DNA from: a virus
Virus record (IMG/VR): IMGVR_UViG_3300033996_001317
Coordinates: 1-36,964 of that record
DNA length: 36,964 bases
Strand: one strand, 5' to 3'
Shown: piece after piece, positions 2,452-33,385 of the stretch
Position numbering within the stretch: the stretch's first letter is position 1
Layout of the letters: every line of letters starts with the position of its first letter
Program-made: the position numbers and the translations under genes
The notes under the pieces: generated by a model
What the model was told of the DNA's origin: nothing
Seen by the model: the letters and a program-made list of their open reading frames with translations, nothing else
The model's database searches: none

Positions 2452-2712
2452 TCAGTTCGGAATTGTACACCCTGGAATTGCCCTGATCTGTGCGTCCAGC
2501 CCCTGAAGTGCGTGTTCGTGTTTCATCAGTTCGGTTCTGCAGTCATCTAGCTGCAGTTGCGCTGCCTTGTGTCGGTCTTCTGCGGCCTGGAGTCGCAGTT
2601 TGAGATTTGGCTTTCTTGCCGCTTCTGCTCTGCGTTTTGCCTGCAAGTCAGCGCAATTTGCAATCGCTGGCACATTCGTGGGATTGGTAGGATTGATCGG
2701 ACCTGTACTCAC
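2452..2712 (-). CDS. Small coiled-coil protein
   Basis: 86 residues. A Pro/Asn-rich N-terminus (INPTNPTNVP) leads into one long helix, rich in Ala, Arg, Glu, Gln and Lys, from about residue 22 to 75, probably a coiled coil. There are four cysteines. The GTG start overlaps the stop of the upstream gene (GTGA) and is preceded by AAAGGTAAAACC. It follows two single-TM proteins. A helical secreted protein just after small membrane proteins would fit an outer-membrane spanin partner, but no lipobox is visible, so the function is unknown. Confidence 0.6.
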   Translation of the reverse strand: MSTGPINPTNPTNVPAIANCADLQAKRRAEAARKPNLKLRLQAAEDRHKAAQLQLDDCRTELMKHEHALQGLDAQIRAIPGCTIPN

Positions 2713-2948
2713 GGTTTTACCTTTGATTTCTGCTCAAGTTGTTTCAAATAACGCTCAAACTCGCCTTCAACAAACACCGGAACCGGCGTCAATTTCTCAA
2801 GGCTAATTTCGTCAATTCTTCGGATGATTTGCTTTTGCGCAACGCTTAGCCTTGCAATTGAGTCGTGAATAATCGTGAGCATCAGACCAATTAAGATCAG
2901 TGCCCCGTAGACCTCTGCTCGTGTCGCTGGCTCAGTAAATCGCGGCAC
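2709..2948 (-). CDS. Small single-TM membrane protein
   Basis: 79 residues with one hydrophobic segment (residues about 13-31, EVYGALILIGLMLTIIHDSI) followed by a charged helical tail ending in Lys-rich residues. GTG start; the candidate ribosome site AAGGG lies about 10 bases upstream. The neighbours on both sides are also small membrane or coiled-coil proteins, so it probably belongs to the lysis set (holin, antiholin or spanin), but the family is not recognised. Confidence 0.6.
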   Translation of the reverse strand: MPRFTEPATRAEVYGALILIGLMLTIIHDSIARLSVAQKQIIRRIDEISLEKLTPVPVFVEGEFERYLKQLEQKSKVKP

Positions 2949-2951
2949 AAA

Positions 2952-3284
2952 TCAGTCGCCCTTTGGAGTTTTTCCACCCACAATCACCCGATGCACCTCG
3001 TCGACTTTTTGCGAGATGACCTCGGTTTTTTTTACCTCTGACTCTGCGATTTTTACTAGCATTTCACCGTTTTTCACCTGCGCGGCCTGAGTCTCGGTTA
3101 GCTGATTAACCGTGTCGAAGTGGTTGTTGAGAAGTTTGTCGAACCTCGGTTGAAGCCACGTTATTAGATTCCACGCAATTAACCCAAACACGAACACCAA
3201 AAACGTTGGCCAGCCATGGCGATCAAGCAGTTTGACCCAGCCCGTTGGGATTTCAATTGATGTCTTTTCAGCTTTTTCAACCAT
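2952..3284 (-). CDS. Membrane-anchored coiled-coil protein (holin/spanin-like candidate)
   Basis: 110 residues from the ATG at 3284, chosen because AAGGGG lies upstream and the longer open frame reaches back through the preceding gene. Residues about 1-25 are amphipathic. Residues about 26-46 (WPTFLVFVFGLIAWNLITWL) form one TM segment. The rest is a charged helix (LTETQAAQVKNGEMLV, then KKTEVISQKVDEVHRVI) with coiled-coil character. One TM followed by a periplasmic coiled coil is the architecture of i-spanins and of some tail-anchored phage membrane proteins. Gene context supports a lysis or envelope role; there is no direct homology. Confidence 0.6.
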   Translation of the reverse strand: MVEKAEKTSIEIPTGWVKLLDRHGWPTFLVFVFGLIAWNLITWLQPRFDKLLNNHFDTVNQLTETQAAQVKNGEMLVKIAESEVKKTEVISQKVDEVHRVIVGGKTPKGD

Positions 3285-3295
3285 CGCCCAGCCCC

Positions 3296-3754
3296 TTAGT
3301 TGTCGCACAGTGGTTTTTGTGGCTGGTCCGATTCGGTCGTTGGATCGTGCGCAAACGCCGTTGAAACTATTTCCCTTGCTTTGTTTCGCATTTCGATAAG
3401 ATCCAGATTTCGTGCGGCCAGTTCCCGGCACTTCGCCTCGTATGATTTGTCGAGCCCCTCGATTTGCACGATGAGGCCGTCAATTGTTTTGTCTCGCTTG
3501 GCAACATCGGCTTCAAGATCAACAATCTTCTCGCGGTTGACGTTGCGCTCATCGCACAGCAAATCCGTATACGCTTTTTGGTACTTGATTCTTTGACTCA
3601 TCGCGGCCGTTTCGAGTCCATACTGACGGCGAACCCAGCACAACAGCCCCCACAGCACAACTGTCACTGCACACCCAATTACCGCAAACACCGTAGACAA
3701 GATCACCCCCCTCCATTGTGTAAAGATTCGGCGGTTCCCCTCACGGCCCGCCAC
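3296..3754 (-). CDS. Membrane-anchored coiled-coil protein, Rz/i-spanin-like candidate
   Basis: 152 residues from the GTG at 3754 (AGGAG upstream). An alternative TTG start at 3700 has an even stronger GGAGG and would begin just before the TM segment. A very weak TTG at 3796 overlaps the stop of the protease gene. The TM segment is STVFAVIGCAVTVVLWGLLC, followed by a roughly 90-residue charged coiled coil (LEADVAKRDKTIDGLIVQIE) and a polar tail. The layout matches the inner-membrane spanin type. It is directly downstream of the secreted serine protease. The start is uncertain; the function is inferred from architecture only. Confidence 0.6.
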   Translation of the reverse strand: MAGREGNRRIFTQWRGVILSTVFAVIGCAVTVVLWGLLCWVRRQYGLETAAMSQRIKYQKAYTDLLCDERNVNREKIVDLEADVAKRDKTIDGLIVQIEGLDKSYEAKCRELAARNLDLIEMRNKAREIVSTAFAHDPTTESDQPQKPLCDN

Positions 3755-3792
3755 GTCACTCCTCGCGGATTCTATCACCGCAATGACGCTTA

Positions 3793-5397
3793 TCAATTTT
3801 TGATCGGAAATTTCACGTCGCGATAGATCCGAGACTTGTGAAACTCGAACACAATCTCATCAGCACAAATCGTCAAACCTGTCAACGGTCGAGAATACTC
3901 TACACGCAAAAGCCCCATAAAAAAAGCCCAATGCGCCCTGACTGCAGGTTCGCCCCGGTCGAATCGGATGGAACACGTCTCCCCGATTGTGGCTGTGATA
4001 GCAATGTTTTCCGCCAAGTAAACGTCGATCGTCGGATGCAAAACATCGTAAACAATTTTAATGGCTTCAATGATTGTCCGTGCAATCAACACCGGATTGC
4101 CGACCTCCCCCGAGGAGCTGACCGTATCAGCGCCGGGCACATCGAACTCGACTTCATCCAGCTTGATCGCAATTTTTCCCGCCTGAAGTCGATAACCAAA
4201 TCCCAGTTTGCTCAGCGGGACATTGCTCGAGCCTTCCACTTGGATATCGATCCTGCCGCTTGTTCCGAGGATGTCAACCAGCTCATGCGACCCGCTCACC
4301 AGCAATGCAGATTTGCCCCCGACTCGCTGCCAGCCGACTTTAATTTTCGACCCATCGGGAAAATACTGCCGTACAGAATCAAGCACCGACTGGATCATAC
4401 TGGCCCCGACAAAATGCCCTTCCGGCTGGCTCTCCGTGATTGCGGCACTGGCTTTTTCTGCAATTGCTTCCCGCAGACTGTCGAGCGATTGGCATCCGTA
4501 AATGACGTGCATCTCACCCGTTGGGCCCGTCCACGAGTGAAACGGATAACCCGCTTTGAGATTACTCGCAAGCCATTCCGCTGTCATCCATTTGGCCGGT
4601 CCCACCTGTCGCGTCACCACTATTGAAGCATCACCGGCTCCTATATTTTTGTGCGACCGATTGCACGGCGGACACGGGAATGGAGCGGTCCAAAATGTTA
4701 CCTGCGTGACCTGCGTAGCCAGTGCCCCCAGCTCCACCGGCATCAGTCCACGCATCAACGATACCGGCGTGTAGACCGATTGTCGCTGATCCAGTCGCGT
4801 GCCGTTAATCAAGCCGACGAGTCGCCCCTCATCGTCAAACAGCCCACCGCCTGACCTTCCCTCGACCTGCTGTCCGTCCGTCATGATTGTTCCTCTGTCT
4901 CGTGATATCAGTTTGTGATTGATCTTCGAACCGGATCCCACGCTGACCAGCGATTGCGGCAACTGATCGTCGCTGGCCATCACCGCAGCCGGGATGTCAC
5001 CGTTAATCGTCAGCACCGCGGCGTCTACCTTTCGATCCGATGCGACCAACACCGCGGGGAATGATTGCCCCCCCTGTCGCACCCGATACTGTGGACTGCT
5101 CACCCCTCGCGCAATGTGCTCGCACGTCAGTACGAGGCATTTGCCCCCGCTTGACCTTACGCACGTCCCTGACCCCGCGTAGCGCACCCGGCCACCGTCG
5201 ATGGCCTCCACGATCACGCTGGCTCGCATGGGATCGTCAGTGGTGGCCTGCTCGGGAGTCGCGGCAACTGCAATCACCAGCCGGAACTCACTCGACCCCA
5301 CCGGATCATCCGGGATCTCAAATTCGCTCGGGATCTCAAGCCCCTGACCCAAGATTGTTCTTGGAATCACCAGCATCAAAACAAATAGGCATTTCAT
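3793..5397 (-). CDS. Secreted trypsin-like serine protease fused to a CPPC thioredoxin-like domain
   Basis: 534 residues from the ATG at 5397, which overlaps the stop of the papain-like gene (ATGA). The open frame is longer upstream but only this start gives a signal peptide (MKCLFVLMLVIPRTILG). Residues about 38-225 form a trypsin-like (S1, HtrA-type) domain with all three catalytic residues visible: His94 in LTCEHIARG, Asp125 in DRKVDAAVL and Ser182 in EGRSGGGLF. Residues about 232-315 begin VTFWTAPFPCPPCNR, a thioredoxin-like start with CPPC at 242-245, ending near HVIYGCQSLDSL. Residues about 320-534 form a further beta-rich domain I do not recognise. The product should act outside the inner membrane. 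A protease joined to a redox-type domain is unusual in phages. Confidence 0.85.
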   Translation of the reverse strand: MKCLFVLMLVIPRTILGQGLEIPSEFEIPDDPVGSSEFRLVIAVAATPEQATTDDPMRASVIVEAIDGGRVRYAGSGTCVRSSGGKCLVLTCEHIARGVSSPQYRVRQGGQSFPAVLVASDRKVDAAVLTINGDIPAAVMASDDQLPQSLVSVGSGSKINHKLISRDRGTIMTDGQQVEGRSGGGLFDDEGRLVGLINGTRLDQRQSVYTPVSLMRGLMPVELGALATQVTQVTFWTAPFPCPPCNRSHKNIGAGDASIVVTRQVGPAKWMTAEWLASNLKAGYPFHSWTGPTGEMHVIYGCQSLDSLREAIAEKASAAITESQPEGHFVGASMIQSVLDSVRQYFPDGSKIKVGWQRVGGKSALLVSGSHELVDILGTSGRIDIQVEGSSNVPLSKLGFGYRLQAGKIAIKLDEVEFDVPGADTVSSSGEVGNPVLIARTIIEAIKIVYDVLHPTIDVYLAENIAITATIGETCSIRFDRGEPAVRAHWAFFMGLLRVEYSRPLTGLTICADEIVFEFHKSRIYRDVKFPIKN

Positions 5398-6179
5398 TCG
5401 GTTTGCTCCACGATGTACGCTCGATCCGCAATTTGCTGCGAGTATTCGACAACTCCAAGCCCGCCCTGACCCCATCCGGTGCCCCACGAATTCACAAACA
5501 ACACTCCGTAACGAGTGTAATCTGTTGCCGGTCGCGATGGGTATCGGTCGAGCACTGCCAGGAACAAAACCGCGTGGCCCCACCAATTGAGCGCGGCAAC
5601 TAGCGGATAGCCTAAGAATAACCTTGAGCCCTGCGCTTGGTGATCTCGGGGAATGGATCTGGCCATTGAGATTTTATTGCTTGCCGCATCGTCTCGCCAA
5701 CCGCCCCTGAAATCGCGGGAATTGGTCGTCAGCATCGGGACGAAATCTTCGCTCGCGACTCCCTGTGTCCGCATCCCTTCGAGCGCGGACTCAATGTAGT
5801 AGCCTCGATCTGTGTATCCAACAATTGGCGCCGCCACCGAAGACGGCGACAATCGGCGAAACGGTCTTGCCTCGACCTCTCGTTGCAGCATCATCCCCGC
5901 CACCGACGAAAACGCCCAGCAGTACGACGATTGACCCTGATTTAGCACGCCGATCCGCGAGCGTTGCCAAACATGATAGAGACTCGACTCATCCTCGTCT
6001 TGCTGCCGGATTGCCTCCGGCCATCGCTCATACGGGATCGTCAGCACCGGAGTCCCCGAGGAGACAACCCCCGGCATCTGATAGTCACTGGGCGGCGCAA
6101 GCGTCCCGCACAATCCCGGCTCACCTATCGTAGATTGCTTCCGTGGATCTACCACGTAGCCCCAATTGATGCTACTCAT
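5394..6179 (-). CDS. Papain-like (C1A) cysteine protease
   Basis: 261 residues with the full papain active site: oxyanion Gln81 six residues before the nucleophile Cys87 (NQGQSSYCWAFSSVAG), His202 in WWGHAVLFLAV and Asn230 in FVNSWGTGWGQGG. The catalytic domain covers about residues 65-261. The first 60 residues are Pro-rich and could act as a short pro-region. There is no signal peptide. The start overlaps the upstream gene by 8 bases and the stop overlaps the next start by ATGA, coupling it to a secreted serine protease. Possible roles are host lysis or envelope degradation, virion maturation, or entry. Its position among membrane proteins favours lysis, but this is inference. Confidence 0.88.
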   Translation of the reverse strand: MSSINWGYVVDPRKQSTIGEPGLCGTLAPPSDYQMPGVVSSGTPVLTIPYERWPEAIRQQDEDESSLYHVWQRSRIGVLNQGQSSYCWAFSSVAGMMLQREVEARPFRRLSPSSVAAPIVGYTDRGYYIESALEGMRTQGVASEDFVPMLTTNSRDFRGGWRDDAASNKISMARSIPRDHQAQGSRLFLGYPLVAALNWWGHAVLFLAVLDRYPSRPATDYTRYGVLFVNSWGTGWGQGGLGVVEYSQQIADRAYIVEQTE

Positions 6180-6438
6180 TGAGTTCCCCTAGCTTTTCGA
6201 CAACCTGTATTTGATTTATGTTGATCCACGTTTCGCGCTTAATGCGACGGCTGTTTTCATTCATTTCGCACTCTGCCATAAATTCCGGCGATAGGCTTGG
6301 ACAGGGATCGCAGTGCAAAAAACCGTCCTCGCAATTATCCACGTTGGCGCAAATCAAGCTAATTGGCGTGTTAAAACACGAAACTATCACCTCGTAAACC
6401 GTCACCACTCGTGTTTTTGGCACTCTTTTGGTAGCCAT
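6172..6438 (-). CDS. Small cysteine-rich protein
   Basis: 88 residues with seven cysteines clustered between about residues 21 and 57 (LICANVDNCEDGFLHCDPCP). A metal-binding or disulfide-stabilised fold is possible. No signal peptide is evident. The start overlaps the preceding stop (TAATG), with GGGGGTG upstream. It lies between a lipoprotein-like gene and the papain-like protease, so it might act with them. Family unknown. Confidence 0.65.
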   Translation of the reverse strand: MATKRVPKTRVVTVYEVIVSCFNTPISLICANVDNCEDGFLHCDPCPSLSPEFMAECEMNENSRRIKRETWININQIQVVEKLGELNE

Positions 6439-6887
6439 TATTTCACCCCCGCAAAATGGTCAAGATCCGCCTTTAATTCGACCCACGATTCCGGCAACGG
6501 CTTTGACAGCCTCGCCCCATTTTCAATTATTAGCCATGGCCACCGATCTGGCTTGGGGCTTGAACGGTCGAGCATTCCTTGCCAGTTGCCGTCCAATCTG
6601 GTCGTTTTGTCCAGCAGGCGGAAGTTGGTTTCACCGTCCCGCGTCGCGTGGTCAAGCATGAATTTGCGGACGTTTTTCCCAGTCAACATTGCACGCTGCA
6701 CCTGACTCAGATTTGCTCGCTGGCTAACGTCCTCGACGATAAGCACCCGCAGGTCATCGCCGATTTCCTCGACCTCTGGGATCGGCACTGGCTGCACGAT
6801 TGGCCGCGTTGGCCGATGGAATGATATCCCGTTCGCGCTGATTTCGCAGCCGATTATCAGCATCAAGACGCATGGTAGCCATCTCAT
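6438..6887 (-). CDS. Putative lipoprotein, possibly thioredoxin-fold
   Basis: 149 residues. The N-terminus MRWLPCVLMLIIGC is a short signal peptide with a plausible lipobox (IIGC, Cys14). The mature part contains VLIVEDVSQRANL, a long middle segment and WPWLIIENGARL. This strand, cis-Pro-like and strand order recalls a thioredoxin fold without CXXC; I hold that loosely. It is coupled to both neighbours (ATGA upstream, TAATG downstream). With the downstream CPPC-domain protease it may form an envelope-acting set. An outer-membrane spanin is an alternative, although it is large for that. Confidence 0.65.
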   Translation of the reverse strand: MRWLPCVLMLIIGCEISANGISFHRPTRPIVQPVPIPEVEEIGDDLRVLIVEDVSQRANLSQVQRAMLTGKNVRKFMLDHATRDGETNFRLLDKTTRLDGNWQGMLDRSSPKPDRWPWLIIENGARLSKPLPESWVELKADLDHFAGVK

Positions 6888-7152: not shown

Positions 7153-7418
7153 ATTCCTTCCTCCAAAACCAAATCTGCCAACAGTGCGCGAGGATTGCAA
7201 ATGTGATCCCCGTCGGCGTCTTCTGAGTTGACGACTCTGATCAGCCGATTGGTTTTTGCCCGCAGTCGCTGTATTTCCGCAAGAGAAAACGAGTGAACTG
7301 CGAACAGTTTTTCCAGCGCCAACATCATTGTCTGTTGCCCGTTCACGATCTCGCTTAATGCAACATCATGCACCGACCCGAGGACCTTCAGTAGCGATAG
7401 CAATTCTAAGTCCGTCAC
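7149..7418 (-). CDS. Small helical protein, paralogue of the gene at 6884-7099
   Basis: 89 residues from the GTG at 7418, overlapping the preceding stop (GTGA) with GGAGGTGACAAA upstream. Predicted all alpha: a leucine-rich N-terminal helix (LELLSLLKVLGSVHDVAL), a hydrophobic middle and the charged repeat EIQRLRAKTNRLIRVV shared with its paralogue. No known family. The context is holin-like gene upstream, duplicated genes around. Confidence 0.65.
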   Translation of the reverse strand: MTDLELLSLLKVLGSVHDVALSEIVNGQQTMMLALEKLFAVHSFSLAEIQRLRAKTNRLIRVVNSEDADGDHICNPRALLADLVLEEGI

Positions 7419-7894
7419 TTTGTCACCTCCGTCACTGCCGGAAACCATTTGGCTGTGATGGCCTGCATCAATGCGCCGACCGCTGCGGCAATCTCCGGGG
7501 ACTGCGTTTCGCTAATCATCGCAAGCTCGGTCATCAGCGCGACAACCATTCGCCTCTGTGCTGCCGCGTCTCCGTTTTTGCTGAACGCGACAACGGCCTG
7601 CAGCAACTCGGTTGCGGCCTGCAATTGCTGCTCGATCTCAGCAGGAGGAATTGGAATCCCAGGTGCGATTGTGTCCCTCACCGACTTAATCGTCGGTTGC
7701 CACTGTCTCCAAAACGCGGCGATTGATGCGACCGTTGATCCGGTAAACAGCGACATTAACAGCGAAACCCAGCTCACCGTTGGCGCAGTGACCACCCCGT
7801 CAGCTCCGACAGCCACCGGCTGGCCCGCGAGAAAAGCGACTCCGATGAGGCAGCCGGATGCGACCATTGCAAAAGCGATAGCGATTCTTGACAT
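7415..7894 (-). CDS. Two-TM membrane protein, holin candidate
   Basis: 159 residues. Residues 4-24 (IAIAFAMVASGCLIGVAFL) form a TM or signal segment with a weak lipobox-like ASGC. Residues about 42-62 (WVSLLMSLFTGSTVASIAAF) form a second TM. The remaining 95 residues are soluble, helical and Ala-rich. AAGGAG lies 12 bases upstream of the ATG. The start is inside the tail of the preceding ORF (121 bases of overlap). Two TM segments, a charged C-terminus and a place between small coiled-coil genes and two proteases suggest a holin, but no family signature is seen. Its first TM was copied into the chimeric ORF at 8176-8385. Confidence 0.7.
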   Translation of the reverse strand: MSRIAIAFAMVASGCLIGVAFLAGQPVAVGADGVVTAPTVSWVSLLMSLFTGSTVASIAAFWRQWQPTIKSVRDTIAPGIPIPPAEIEQQLQAATELLQAVVAFSKNGDAAAQRRMVVALMTELAMISETQSPEIAAAVGALMQAITAKWFPAVTEVTK

Positions 7895-8094: not shown

Positions 8095-8426
8095 TCAATC
8101 ACCTCCCATGTTAAATCGTCTTTGCTCGGGCAACGCTCGCGCGTTGACCACCCCGTCAGTTCCAACAGCCACCGGCTAACCCGCGAGAACAGCGATTCCG
8201 ATGAGACAGGCGGATGCGACCATTGCAAAAGCGATTTCGATTTTCAGTTTATCAATCTCGTTTTGCATGTCCGAGACTATTCTTTCGTGATCGTCAAATA
8301 ACACGAAATCGACGTCGTCGCTTTCCTCCACCTCGAAGTAAAAAATCGTCGTCGTCCATCGCTGAATCGCCTGTTTGTCTGTCACTGAATCACCTCCCAT
8401 TCTAAATCGTCTTTGCTCGGGTAATG
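7790..8426. repeat. Mosaic direct duplications within the coiled-coil/holin-like cluster
   Basis: Three pairs of direct repeats are visible. Pair A is 7790-7879 with 8146-8235 (about 90 bases, about ten differences). Pair B is 7945-8008 with 8236-8299. Pair C is 8096-8135 with 8387-8426. In the second copy A and B lie directly side by side, although they are about 65 bases apart in the first. The segment 8096-8175 is therefore non-coding relic sequence: a copy of the end of the gene at 8382-8624 (CPSKDDLTWEVIE then stop) joined to a copy of the holin-like N-terminal region. The pattern needs at least one duplication and one deletion. Confidence 0.85.
8176..8385 (-). CDS. Chimeric coiled-coil protein with C-terminal TM tail
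   Basis: 69 residues from the GTG at 8385 (GGGAGGTGATTCA upstream, GTGA overlap with the gene before). Residues 1-51 (RIVSDMQNEIDKLKIEI) are homologous to the coiled-coil ORF at 7774-8094. Residues 52-69 (AFAMVASACLIGIAVLAG) match the first TM of the holin-like protein (AFAMVASGCLIGVAFLAG). The frame then stops at TAG where the holin-like gene has CAG. Recombination between paralogous genes thus made a possible tail-anchored membrane protein. Whether it is expressed or a decaying relic is unclear; its frame and ribosome site are intact. Confidence 0.6.
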   Translation of the reverse strand: MTDKQAIQRWTTTIFYFEVEESDDVDFVLFDDHERIVSDMQNEIDKLKIEIAFAMVASACLIGIAVLAG

Positions 8427-8624
8427 TTCCGGCGTTGATTGGTTGATCGCTTTCCAGAGCGAATTGCATTTGTTTTTCAGTCTTCGATTTTCCGTCGTCC
8501 GTCGCTCGACCTCGGCCATAAGCCATTCGATTGCCGCCAACGTTTCACCATCATCAGCAAGCAAAAAAAACCCATCGGCAATTAAAGTGTTTAACAGCTC
8601 AAGGTGTTTATTAGTCCCAGTCAT
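8382..8624 (-). CDS. Small coiled-coil protein of unknown function
   Basis: 80 residues. GGAGGAAGCAACACG precedes the ATG. It has a hydrophobic N-terminus (LELLNTLIADGFFLLADD), then a charged coiled coil (EVERRTTENRRLKNKCNSLW). The C-terminal end (PSKDDLEWEVIQ) reappears as a relic at 8096-8135. It overlaps the gene before by 14 bases and the gene after by GTGA. Confidence 0.65.
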   Translation of the reverse strand: MTGTNKHLELLNTLIADGFFLLADDGETLAAIEWLMAEVERRTTENRRLKNKCNSLWKAINQSTPEHYPSKDDLEWEVIQ

Positions 8625-31255: not shown

Positions 31256-33385
31256 TCACGCCGCACCCTTGGACTTGACCCCGCCCAAATACTCGGCCTG
31301 ATCCACGCCGAAATCGTGATAGCCTCGGAACTGGATGCCCAGCGTCGAGAAGTCGGCGTCGGCGCTCTCGACCGTTGGCGTTTCGACCCCGTTGAGAAAA
31401 CTCACCACGGTCGTCGGCAAATAGCCTGGCGAATTGAGCAGGTAAAACGCGGTCGTGCTGTAGCCGGTGTAAGTCGAGTCCGACAACTGCCACGCAACGA
31501 CTGGCCGGTACTTCCCGGCGTAGATGTTTGACTCGCTCGTCTTGGTCATGCCCAAGTTTTGATTGCGATACAGTGCCTCGGCGATCGCCTCCAGTTCTGG
31601 CGGAACGAGCAGGATTTCAGGACGGCCCCCGGCCCCCGTTCTGCCAACTGGGTTTGCCGTGTCGGCGTTGACTCGCTTCTTTCCGTCTGCTGTTGGCGAT
31701 GTCATTTGGCGGAATTTGAGCACCGCAAGCTGCAGCCCGACCCCGTCAGTTCCGAGATTGCTGGTCGCTCCCGTCAAATAATTCGTGTTTCCGGTTGTGA
31801 AAAACGAACTGTTGTTTGTGAATTCGGTCCAGAAAACTTGGTTCAGCTTTTTGGCTGACCCTCGACCGATTCGCGCTCGCAAATCGTCGAACGCGCCCAT
31901 GTCATCGTTGATAATCATCGTGCGGGTGATGGCGAACATCTTGGCGTAGGTATCGACCTGCCGGGTGTAAGTCTCCTCACCGACTCCACCATGGCGGATC
32001 TCACCTGCTGGCGACAGTTGCTCGTAGGTCATGTCGTCGAGCAGCCGATAGCTGGTCGCTTGTTTGAAGTCGCTGACCGATTTCACGGCGGCGATTTCCC
32101 GCCACGCGGAATCTTCCTCCATGTAGCCGGTGAGCAGTTCCTTGTTGGCGACGTTGCTCAAAATGTTGGGAACACTGACAGTCGAAAATCCGGTCGCTTG
32201 CAGCTCTTGACCGCTAGGGCAGGCAAACCGCAGCACGTCCCGCAAATTGCCAGTGTGAATTCCCTCGCCTGCGTTGGCGTGGTATCCGTTGGCCGATGCG
32301 GCCTGCAGCAGCATTTGCTTGAGTCCGATCCCCCGGCGAAACTGAGAGTGAGCGGCCTGCAGGATCGCGGGCAAGTAGTCCTTTTCGACCTCCCGAGTTT
32401 TTCGCGTCATGCAAATCGCGGCCTCTAAAACCGTGGCCTGGTCCAGATTGCTTTCTGCGGATCGGAACGACGTTGGCCGTGTTTTGGCCAGCGATGCCCG
32501 CAGCATTTCTAAATTGACTCGGTCCGTCGACCACCCCTGTTCAATGGCTGTTGCGGCGATCGTTGGGTTGCCAGCGGCTGCAGCCTGAATCTCGGCGACC
32601 CGGCGAAGATTTGCGGCGATTTCTCGGTTTTGCGCGGCGAGCGCGGCTTTCAAATTCATCATTGCACCTGCGGCCATTGGCGGCTCTTCTTTTGGTTTTT
32701 CTCCGGCTGGCATGTCATCCATCGTCGCGGCGGCTGGCGTTGGCTTTGCTGTTGCGGCGTCGTAAGCCATGCTCAGCACGGCGCGGTTCTCATCGCTCAG
32801 GCTTGCCGCGGCAATCCCGAGACTTTCAAGCCATTCTTCAAAAGACGGCATATAATTTCCCTTCATGGCTGCGGCTGCAGCAAGATTTACCGAAGTCGTC
32901 GAGTCGGCACCAACCGGTAACACGCTCGTCTCTCTCAGTGATGCGGATCGTGCGACAATGCACGGCCCCGTAAATGATTGACCGTTGACCTGGACTGTTT
33001 GTCCGGGCTCGATCTCGACTGAATCTGTGACCATGGCCCCGATTGAGGCTTGCCACGTGTGCCCGGCGGCGGCTTGTGCGATTACTTGGCGGCAAATCTC
33101 GCTTTGGCCGGTAACGAGCCCCGAAATTACGAGGGTTTTGCGGTCGTTTTTGATTGAATCCGTCAGCCCCAGCGTGGCTTCGACGGTTTTTTTGTGGTCG
33201 AGTAGGATCGGAATCTGATGGTCTGAAACCAGTCCCGCCAGATCGATGATTACCGGGTATGGAAAGCCATCGACATTGAGCAGCCCGCCCGAATACGCGA
33301 GAATTTTGAACCGTTTTTGTCCAGTTTTTGGCGCGTTTTCGGCTGCGTTGAGCTCGATTGCTGCTGTGAAATTGAGTTTTTTCAT
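31256..33385 (-). CDS. Fused prohead protease, scaffold and major capsid protein
   Basis: 709 residues in one frame, with stop TGA-TAA. Residues about 1-160 are a HK97-type (S78) prohead protease: His64 in ILLDHKKTVEATLG and Ser114 in TWQASIGAMV are the likely catalytic residues. Residues about 165-330 are helical, Ala/Met-rich and scaffold-like. Residues about 330-709 form the capsid protein (VLRFACPSGQELQATGFSTV, MFAITRTMIINDDMGAFDDL, GRPEILLVPPELEAIAEALY, TVVSFLNGVETPTVESADAD). The protease would be expected to release the capsid subunit by cutting after the scaffold. ATGA coupling to portal. Confidence 0.85.
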   Translation of the reverse strand: MKKLNFTAAIELNAAENAPKTGQKRFKILAYSGGLLNVDGFPYPVIIDLAGLVSDHQIPILLDHKKTVEATLGLTDSIKNDRKTLVISGLVTGQSEICRQVIAQAAAGHTWQASIGAMVTDSVEIEPGQTVQVNGQSFTGPCIVARSASLRETSVLPVGADSTTSVNLAAAAAMKGNYMPSFEEWLESLGIAAASLSDENRAVLSMAYDAATAKPTPAAATMDDMPAGEKPKEEPPMAAGAMMNLKAALAAQNREIAANLRRVAEIQAAAAGNPTIAATAIEQGWSTDRVNLEMLRASLAKTRPTSFRSAESNLDQATVLEAAICMTRKTREVEKDYLPAILQAAHSQFRRGIGLKQMLLQAASANGYHANAGEGIHTGNLRDVLRFACPSGQELQATGFSTVSVPNILSNVANKELLTGYMEEDSAWREIAAVKSVSDFKQATSYRLLDDMTYEQLSPAGEIRHGGVGEETYTRQVDTYAKMFAITRTMIINDDMGAFDDLRARIGRGSAKKLNQVFWTEFTNNSSFFTTGNTNYLTGATSNLGTDGVGLQLAVLKFRQMTSPTADGKKRVNADTANPVGRTGAGGRPEILLVPPELEAIAEALYRNQNLGMTKTSESNIYAGKYRPVVAWQLSDSTYTGYSTTAFYLLNSPGYLPTTVVSFLNGVETPTVESADADFSTLGIQFRGYHDFGVDQAEYLGGVKSKGAA

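What the first reader, a model, noticed from the sequence alone, without database searches (positions are those of the whole stretch)
3793..6179. Coupled papain-like and secreted trypsin/CPPC proteases in place of a recognisable endolysin
Both proteases have intact catalytic residues and are coupled by ATGA. They lie among membrane proteins, and no lysozyme, amidase or transglycosylase is visible anywhere in the window. One explanation is lysis or envelope opening by proteolysis, suited to a host with a protein-rich envelope. Alternatives are anti-host or virion proteases.
Basis: partly seen in the sequence, partly recalled or inferred. Interest (0 to 1): 0.8.

Follow-up and report, generated by a model that had tools for sequence, protein, structure and literature searches.

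The report
Phage papain-type lysis enzyme candidate
This phage carries a papain-like protease that, in a range of other phages, sits among the cell-lysis genes or is fused to cell-wall-binding parts, and no ordinary wall-cutting enzyme is found in its genome, so the protease is probably how it opens its host; the second, trypsin-like protease next to it looks like a local extra.

Summary
Both proteases are real. The papain gene (5394-6179) passes the Pfam Peptidase_C1 cut-off, keeps Gln81/Cys87/His202/Asn230, and folds confidently (pLDDT 85) as cathepsin. The trypsin gene (3793-5397, coupled by ATGA) has His94/Asp125/Ser182, a signal-like start and a CPPC motif. 'No endolysin' holds: family scans of the window ORFs, and of the 2.2 kb missing between the window's ends (recovered from an overlapping contig with 100% identical ends), find no wall hydrolase. 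The conserved unit is not papain+trypsin. It is a secreted or lipoprotein partner followed by papain, seen in the window and three or four other phage genomes; the trypsin is absent from all nine related records searched. One relative has a clear holin 2.4 kb from the papain and no recognised hydrolase among 51 ORFs scanned. In isolated phages the papain often lies in the lysis cassette (Gordonia, Arthrobacter, Thermoanaerobacterium), and in two phage proteins it is fused to peptidoglycan-binding and wall-hydrolase domains; four other isolates carry it elsewhere. Best reading: a papain-type (C1A) peptidase serving as a lysis enzyme, possibly the main one, cutting wall peptides or envelope proteins. 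Substrate, host and lytic activity are untested.

The parts
5394..6179 (-). C1A papain-family peptidase, 261 aa; Gln81, Cys87, His202, Asn230; no signal peptide predicted
   Evidence: Pfam PF00112 21.7 bits; phmmer cathepsin K 5.5e-6; model pLDDT 85, PDB cathepsins E ~1e-10; catalytic residues conserved in 55 phage papains
3793..5397 (-). Trypsin-like (Trypsin_2/HtrA-like) serine protease, 534 aa, signal-like N-terminus, His94/Asp125/Ser182, CPPC 242-245, uncharacterised C-terminal 290 aa, no PDZ found; accessory
   Evidence: Pfam PF13365 50.8 bits; residues; in the window only among 10 records searched
6438..6887 (-). Predicted lipoprotein (IIGC lipobox) with Pro-rich stretch and C-terminal domain; conserved partner of the papain, homologous to the secreted PKD/Pro-rich protein upstream of the papain in G021
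   Evidence: phmmer E 4e-6 against all ORFs of four phages; hhalign 77% probability
6172..6438 (-). 88 aa protein between partner and papain, overlapping the papain start; unknown
3296..3796 (-). 166 aa, one N-terminal membrane segment then coiled coil (inner-spanin-like by shape only), overlaps the trypsin stop
2952..3431 (-). Single-membrane-segment protein, unknown
2709..2948 (-). Single-membrane-segment protein, unknown
7415..7894 (-). Two-membrane-segment protein, holin candidate by topology only (no family match)

Best explanation
The papain gene encodes the lysis or envelope-opening peptidase of this phage. It is made late together with a secreted or lipoprotein partner and membrane proteins, one of which probably acts as the holin. 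It has no signal peptide, so it would reach the envelope when the holin opens the membrane, as a classical endolysin does; the G007 version carries an N-terminal membrane anchor instead. Once there it hydrolyses peptide bonds in the wall stem or cross-bridge peptides, or in wall-linked envelope proteins. The trypsin-like protein is exported on its own and is an accessory of this phage lineage, perhaps clearing envelope or misfolded periplasmic proteins. Shown: both genes, intact active sites, the papain fold (as a confident model), the conserved partner-papain order, lysis-cassette linkage and wall-domain fusions in other phages, and absence of a recognised hydrolase. Inferred: expression timing, holin identity, substrate and lytic activity.
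For: (1) No recognised hydrolase in the window or the bridged 2.2 kb. (2) Phages sharing the same head module (G007, MCP 51%; G021) also carry a C1 papain. (3) G021 has a Phage_holin_4_1 gene (5.7e-26) 2.4 kb downstream of its papain and no recognised wall hydrolase among 51 ORFs scanned. (4) A secreted Pro-rich partner lies directly upstream of the papain in G021, G022 and G024; the window has the homologue two genes up, and a similar protein precedes the papain in G007. (5) Isolated phages with a C1 gene in or beside the lysis cassette: Gordonia Sixama, Morgana, Lilbeanie and GMA2 (lysin A genes, small gene, C1, holin), Arthrobacter Mufasa8, Thermoanaerobacterium THSA-485A beside GH25, Streptomyces ZL12 near an Amidase_2 gene. 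(6) Fusions: Alicyclobacillus MMB025 protein = C1 + glycoside hydrolase-like + PG_binding_1; contig L066 protein = C1 + PG_binding_1 + NlpC/P60 (sub-cutoff), followed by two small predicted membrane genes. (7) In the window and in L075/G024 the papain lies upstream of the terminase genes, the lambda-like lysis position (lambda order from own knowledge).
Against: In those isolated phages a conventional endolysin is also present, so the papain need not be the main lysin. Four other isolates carry a C1 gene outside any lysis cassette (Sycamore, Saguaro, XacN1, FLC9). Across 59 viral contigs, small membrane genes next to papains are only slightly enriched (34% against 23%, one-sided p 0.048). The window papain has no wall-binding domain, and its holin is a guess. 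In G007, G021 and G022 the module lies inside structural genes, which would also suit a virion protein. A lysin of an undescribed family cannot be excluded.
Confidence: 0.52

Rival explanations
1. The papain is an auxiliary lysis factor: it cleaves proteins of the envelope (lipoproteins, S-layer or wall-linked proteins), while wall hydrolysis is done by an unrecognised phage enzyme or by host autolysins.
For: In Gordonia, Arthrobacter and Thermoanaerobacterium phages it accompanies one or two conventional lysins. The second, exported protease in the window fits general proteolysis of the envelope.
Against: No other candidate enzyme is recognised in the window's reconstructed genome, or among the ORFs scanned in G021; a novel one could be missed.
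Confidence: 0.22
2. Virion-associated entry protease: papain and trypsin are carried in the particle and digest surface proteins at infection, the partner protein being an adhesin-like companion.
For: In G007, G021 and G022 the module sits among head and tail genes; the partner in other phages resembles Ig/PKD surface proteins.
Against: The partner and the trypsin have export signals or a lipobox, unusual for virion proteins; lysis-cassette linkage and wall-hydrolase fusions in other phages.
Confidence: 0.12
3. Anti-host or surface-remodelling proteases (host takeover, superinfection exclusion, removal of receptors).
For: Exported partner and trypsin; C1 genes outside lysis cassettes in some phages.
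Against: Clustering with membrane genes and positions next to terminase or structural genes suggest late expression; fusions to PG-binding domains.
Confidence: 0.09
4. Head or tail maturation proteases.
For: Phages often encode maturation proteases (own knowledge).
Against: The head protease is already fused to the major capsid protein at 31256-33385; the trypsin is exported.
Confidence: 0.03

Closest known systems
C1A cysteine proteases in Gordonia/Arthrobacter phage lysis cassettes (Sixama gp109, Morgana gp30, Lilbeanie gp40, GMA2 Orf38, Mufasa8 gp26)
   Same: C1-family enzyme of similar size (Pfam C1 over cut-off for Sixama gp109), late gene next to membrane/holin genes
   Different: There it accompanies conventional lysin A genes; window sequences are too far apart for a tblastn match
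Multidomain protein of Alicyclobacillus phage MMB025, annotated endolysin (C1 + glycoside hydrolase-like + PG_binding_1)
   Same: Papain catalytic domain in a predicted lytic enzyme
   Different: The window papain is a single domain without a wall-binding part
PeiR, endoisopeptidase of the Methanobrevibacter prophage phi-mru (PMC2812497)
   Same: A peptidase acting as the lytic enzyme, shown to lyse cells; the same paper suggests PF00112 domains of the host act in pseudomurein turnover
   Different: PeiR was reported without homologues, not as a C1 papain (its cysteine type is from my own knowledge), and acts on pseudomurein
N5 peptidase domain of mycobacteriophage lysin A (PMC3314691)
   Same: Papain-superfamily cysteine peptidase in a lysin
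   Different: C39-like and part of multidomain lysins, not C1A
DegP/DegS/HtrA serine proteases
   Same: Trypsin-like catalytic domain of the second protease, exported
   Different: No PDZ domain found; scores far below NCBIfam cut-offs

Membership tests
Peptidase family C1 (PF00112) | Profile score above curated cut-off | tested here: met
   21.7 bits against 20.7; G007 22.0, G021 9.3e-8
Peptidase family C1 (PF00112) | Gln/Cys/His/Asn catalytic set with NSWG motif | tested here: met
   Gln81, Cys87, His202, Asn230-Ser-Trp-Gly, conserved in alignment A6
Peptidase family C1 (PF00112) | Papain fold | tested here: met
   Model pLDDT 85; cathepsin K E 3.4e-10, target-normalised TM 0.66
Peptidase family C1 (PF00112) | Proteolytic activity | not testable with these tools
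   needs biochemistry
Trypsin-like serine peptidase (PF13365) | Profile score and His/Asp/Ser triad | tested here: met
   50.8 bits against 27.6; His94, Asp125, Ser182
HtrA/DegP (S1C) | C-terminal PDZ domain(s) | tested here: not met
   no PDZ match in Pfam or NCBIfam scans
Phage endolysin / lysis cassette | Known cell-wall hydrolase family | tested here: not met
   C1 is not among the endolysin families named in the main text of the survey PMC5968864; wall-domain fusions of C1 exist
Phage endolysin / lysis cassette | Adjacent recognised holin | tested here: inconclusive
   Only unassigned membrane genes in the window; true holin near the papain in G021
Phage endolysin / lysis cassette | Lytic activity on the host wall | not testable with these tools
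   needs expression and sacculus assays

The most novel reading that the evidence does not exclude
A widespread but unrecognised class of phage endolysin is a C1A papain. In the lineage of this window it has replaced conventional peptidoglycan hydrolases altogether and works as a two-gene module with an exported Pro-rich partner, here reinforced by an exported trypsin-like protease.
Probability: 0.33. Interest if true: 0.75.

Novelty: new variant of a known kind. Interest (0 to 1): 0.55.

Why it matters
Endolysin searches look for amidases, muramidases, CHAP, NlpC/P60 and M15/M23 domains; phages whose genomes show none of these leave their mode of lysis open. A papain-type lysin would fill that gap for a family of uncultured phages, give a simple test (active-site Cys to Ala), and offer a new enzyme class that opens bacterial envelopes. 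If the target is protein rather than peptidoglycan, it would also reveal an envelope held together in part by proteins.

Tried and rejected
Direct searches for relatives of either protease in phage records, IMG/VR and GTDB genomes gave almost nothing by sequence, so relatives were reached through the capsid protein, a papain active-site DNA motif and a papain alignment. A papain+trypsin pair as the conserved unit: rejected, no Trypsin_2 in nine related records, and two apparent GxSGG neighbours (L097, L098) were not proteases. A hidden endolysin in the gap between the window's ends: rejected, the gap was recovered and scanned. A first structure job with four sequences was useless (pLDDT 32). 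Thioredoxin for the CPPC region: no match found, left open. Small membrane neighbours as general proof of a lysis role: weak. Host assignment to planctomycetes: no evidence obtainable here, not claimed. The promoter and terminator scan was at chance level.

Full report
What is there. Two genes on the minus strand, in the order reported: a papain-family gene (6179->5394) and a trypsin-family gene (ATG 5397 -> 3793), overlapping as ATGA. The papain protein passes the Pfam Peptidase_C1 cut-off narrowly (21.7 against 20.7 bits), matches cathepsin K at E 5.5e-6 and keeps Gln81, Cys87, His202 and Asn230. In an alignment of 55 phage papains His202 and Asn230-Ser-Trp-Gly are invariant and Gln81 and Cys87 are at least 90% conserved. 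A model built on that alignment has pLDDT 85 and pTM 0.85 and matches cathepsins and falcipains in the PDB at E about 1e-10 and phage 'Peptidase C1A' proteins in BFVD at 1e-11. The trypsin protein has Trypsin_2 at 50.8 bits, His94/Asp125/Ser182, a signal-like start and a CPPC motif at 242-245; its last 290 residues match nothing and no PDZ domain is found.

Is there an endolysin elsewhere? The window is a linear piece of a larger genome. Contig G015 is 100% identical over 8,212 bases at one end and 406 bases at the other and carries 2,223 bases between them. Those bases encode the TerL N-terminus, a small-terminase-like protein, a Mom-family protein and a ParB-like protein, so the full genome is about 39.2 kb. 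Pfam and PHROG scans of the window ORFs and the bridged ones found no peptidoglycan hydrolase (the PHROG list showed 25 of 35 families, best first). The absence is real for known families; an unknown family cannot be excluded.

Relatives. Searching with the capsid protein gave 22 loci. G007 (40,889 bp, judged complete from circular overlap with G006) shares capsid, portal, terminase and recombination genes. It lacks the window's proteases by direct search but has its own C1 papain with a membrane anchor (PF00112 22.0 bits), directly after an exported protein with a PKD-like stretch and Pro-rich region. The closest papains to the window's are in G021 (phmmer 7.9e-19), G024/L075 (8.6e-12) and G022/L093 (7.6e-9). 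G021 shares portal, capsid and terminase with the window. In G021, G022 and G024 the papain directly follows an exported Pro-rich protein; the window's 6438-6887 lipoprotein is homologous to the G021 one (4e-6) and is separated from the papain by one small gene. Thus the conserved unit is partner + papain. Trypsin_2 was found in the window only among ten records.

Lysis context. G021 has a Phage_holin_4_1 gene 2.4 kb from its papain, and among 51 scanned ORFs the only wall-lysis-type candidate is the papain. For G007 and G024 no hydrolase is among the 25 strongest of 43 Pfam families (the rest were not shown). Among isolated phages, the C1 gene lies in or beside the lysis cassette in Gordonia Sixama, Morgana, Lilbeanie and GMA2, Arthrobacter Mufasa8 and Thermoanaerobacterium THSA-485A, is near an Amidase_2 gene in Streptomyces ZL12, and is the N-terminal domain of the annotated endolysin of Alicyclobacillus MMB025, together with a glycoside hydrolase-like domain and PG_binding_1. 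Contig L066 encodes C1 + PG_binding_1 + a sub-cutoff NlpC/P60, followed by two small predicted membrane genes. BFVD hits include phage proteins named peptidoglycan-binding-like and N-acetylmuramidase. Against this, Sycamore, Saguaro, XacN1 and FLC9 have the gene elsewhere, and the neighbour statistic over 59 contigs is weak. A C1 domain is therefore associated with lysis genes in several unrelated phages, but not in all.

Interpretation. Papain as lysis peptidase is the best reading (about 0.5). The enzyme lacks a signal peptide, which fits holin-dependent release. Whether it cuts peptidoglycan peptides or envelope proteins is open: fusion to PG-binding domains favours the wall. PeiR, the lytic enzyme of a methanogen prophage, shows that a peptidase can be the lytic enzyme (PMC2812497), and mycobacteriophage lysins contain papain-superfamily N5 domains (PMC3314691). 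The trypsin is an exported accessory. The 'protein-rich envelope' idea cannot be tested without a host; planctomycetes, for which it was once proposed, have peptidoglycan (PMC4432640, PMC4432595).

Novelty. C1 papains in phages are annotated in databases, and a cysteine-protease-like lysis gene is mentioned in a genome announcement (BetterKatz, PMC4982276; its family was not checked). The endolysin survey read here does not name the C1 family in its main text (PMC5968864), and I found no paper that treats C1A as an endolysin class (only open-licence papers were searched). A lineage where it appears to be the only lysis-type enzyme is a new variant of a known kind.

Noticed in passing
L079:8010-9875 (minus): A phage C1 papain gene of 621 aa is interrupted by an intein-like insert (starting CHKADTEVLTDSG, ending ISGN/C) placed exactly before the catalytic cysteine, so the enzyme would be active only after protein splicing; Pfam Intein_splicing is weak (E 0.018) but the flanks align to normal papains on both sides.
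   Followed up: partly
window:16945-17151 (minus): A CsrA-family regulator (Pfam CsrA in the window scan); homologues in G007 and G021, and two CsrA matches in the G007+G024 scan, so CsrA seems a common feature of these phages.
   Followed up: partly
between window 36964 and 1 (L040:8213-10435): 2,223 bases are missing from the window; they encode a Mom-family DNA modification protein (Pfam 7e-43), a ParB-like protein, a small-terminase-like protein and the TerL N-terminus.
   Followed up: yes
window:7415-7894 and 8176-8526 (minus): The C-terminal membrane segment of the 8176-8526 ORF (IAFAMVASACLIGIAVLAG) nearly repeats the N-terminal one of the 7415-7894 protein (IAFAMVASGCLIGVAFLAG), suggesting a local duplication with one truncated copy.
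   Followed up: no
L066:3732-5258 (minus): A single phage protein combines C1 papain, PG_binding_1 and an NlpC/P60-like domain, followed by two small predicted membrane genes.
   Followed up: partly
L026:7744-11571 (minus), G007: Portal, head protease and major capsid protein lie in one 1,275-residue reading frame, whereas the window has the portal separate from the protease-capsid fusion.
   Followed up: no
L108:1330-2409: A phage C1 papain fused to a copper amine oxidase N-terminal-type domain (PF07833, 42.9 bits), a module also seen in wall-associated bacterial proteins (own knowledge).
   Followed up: no
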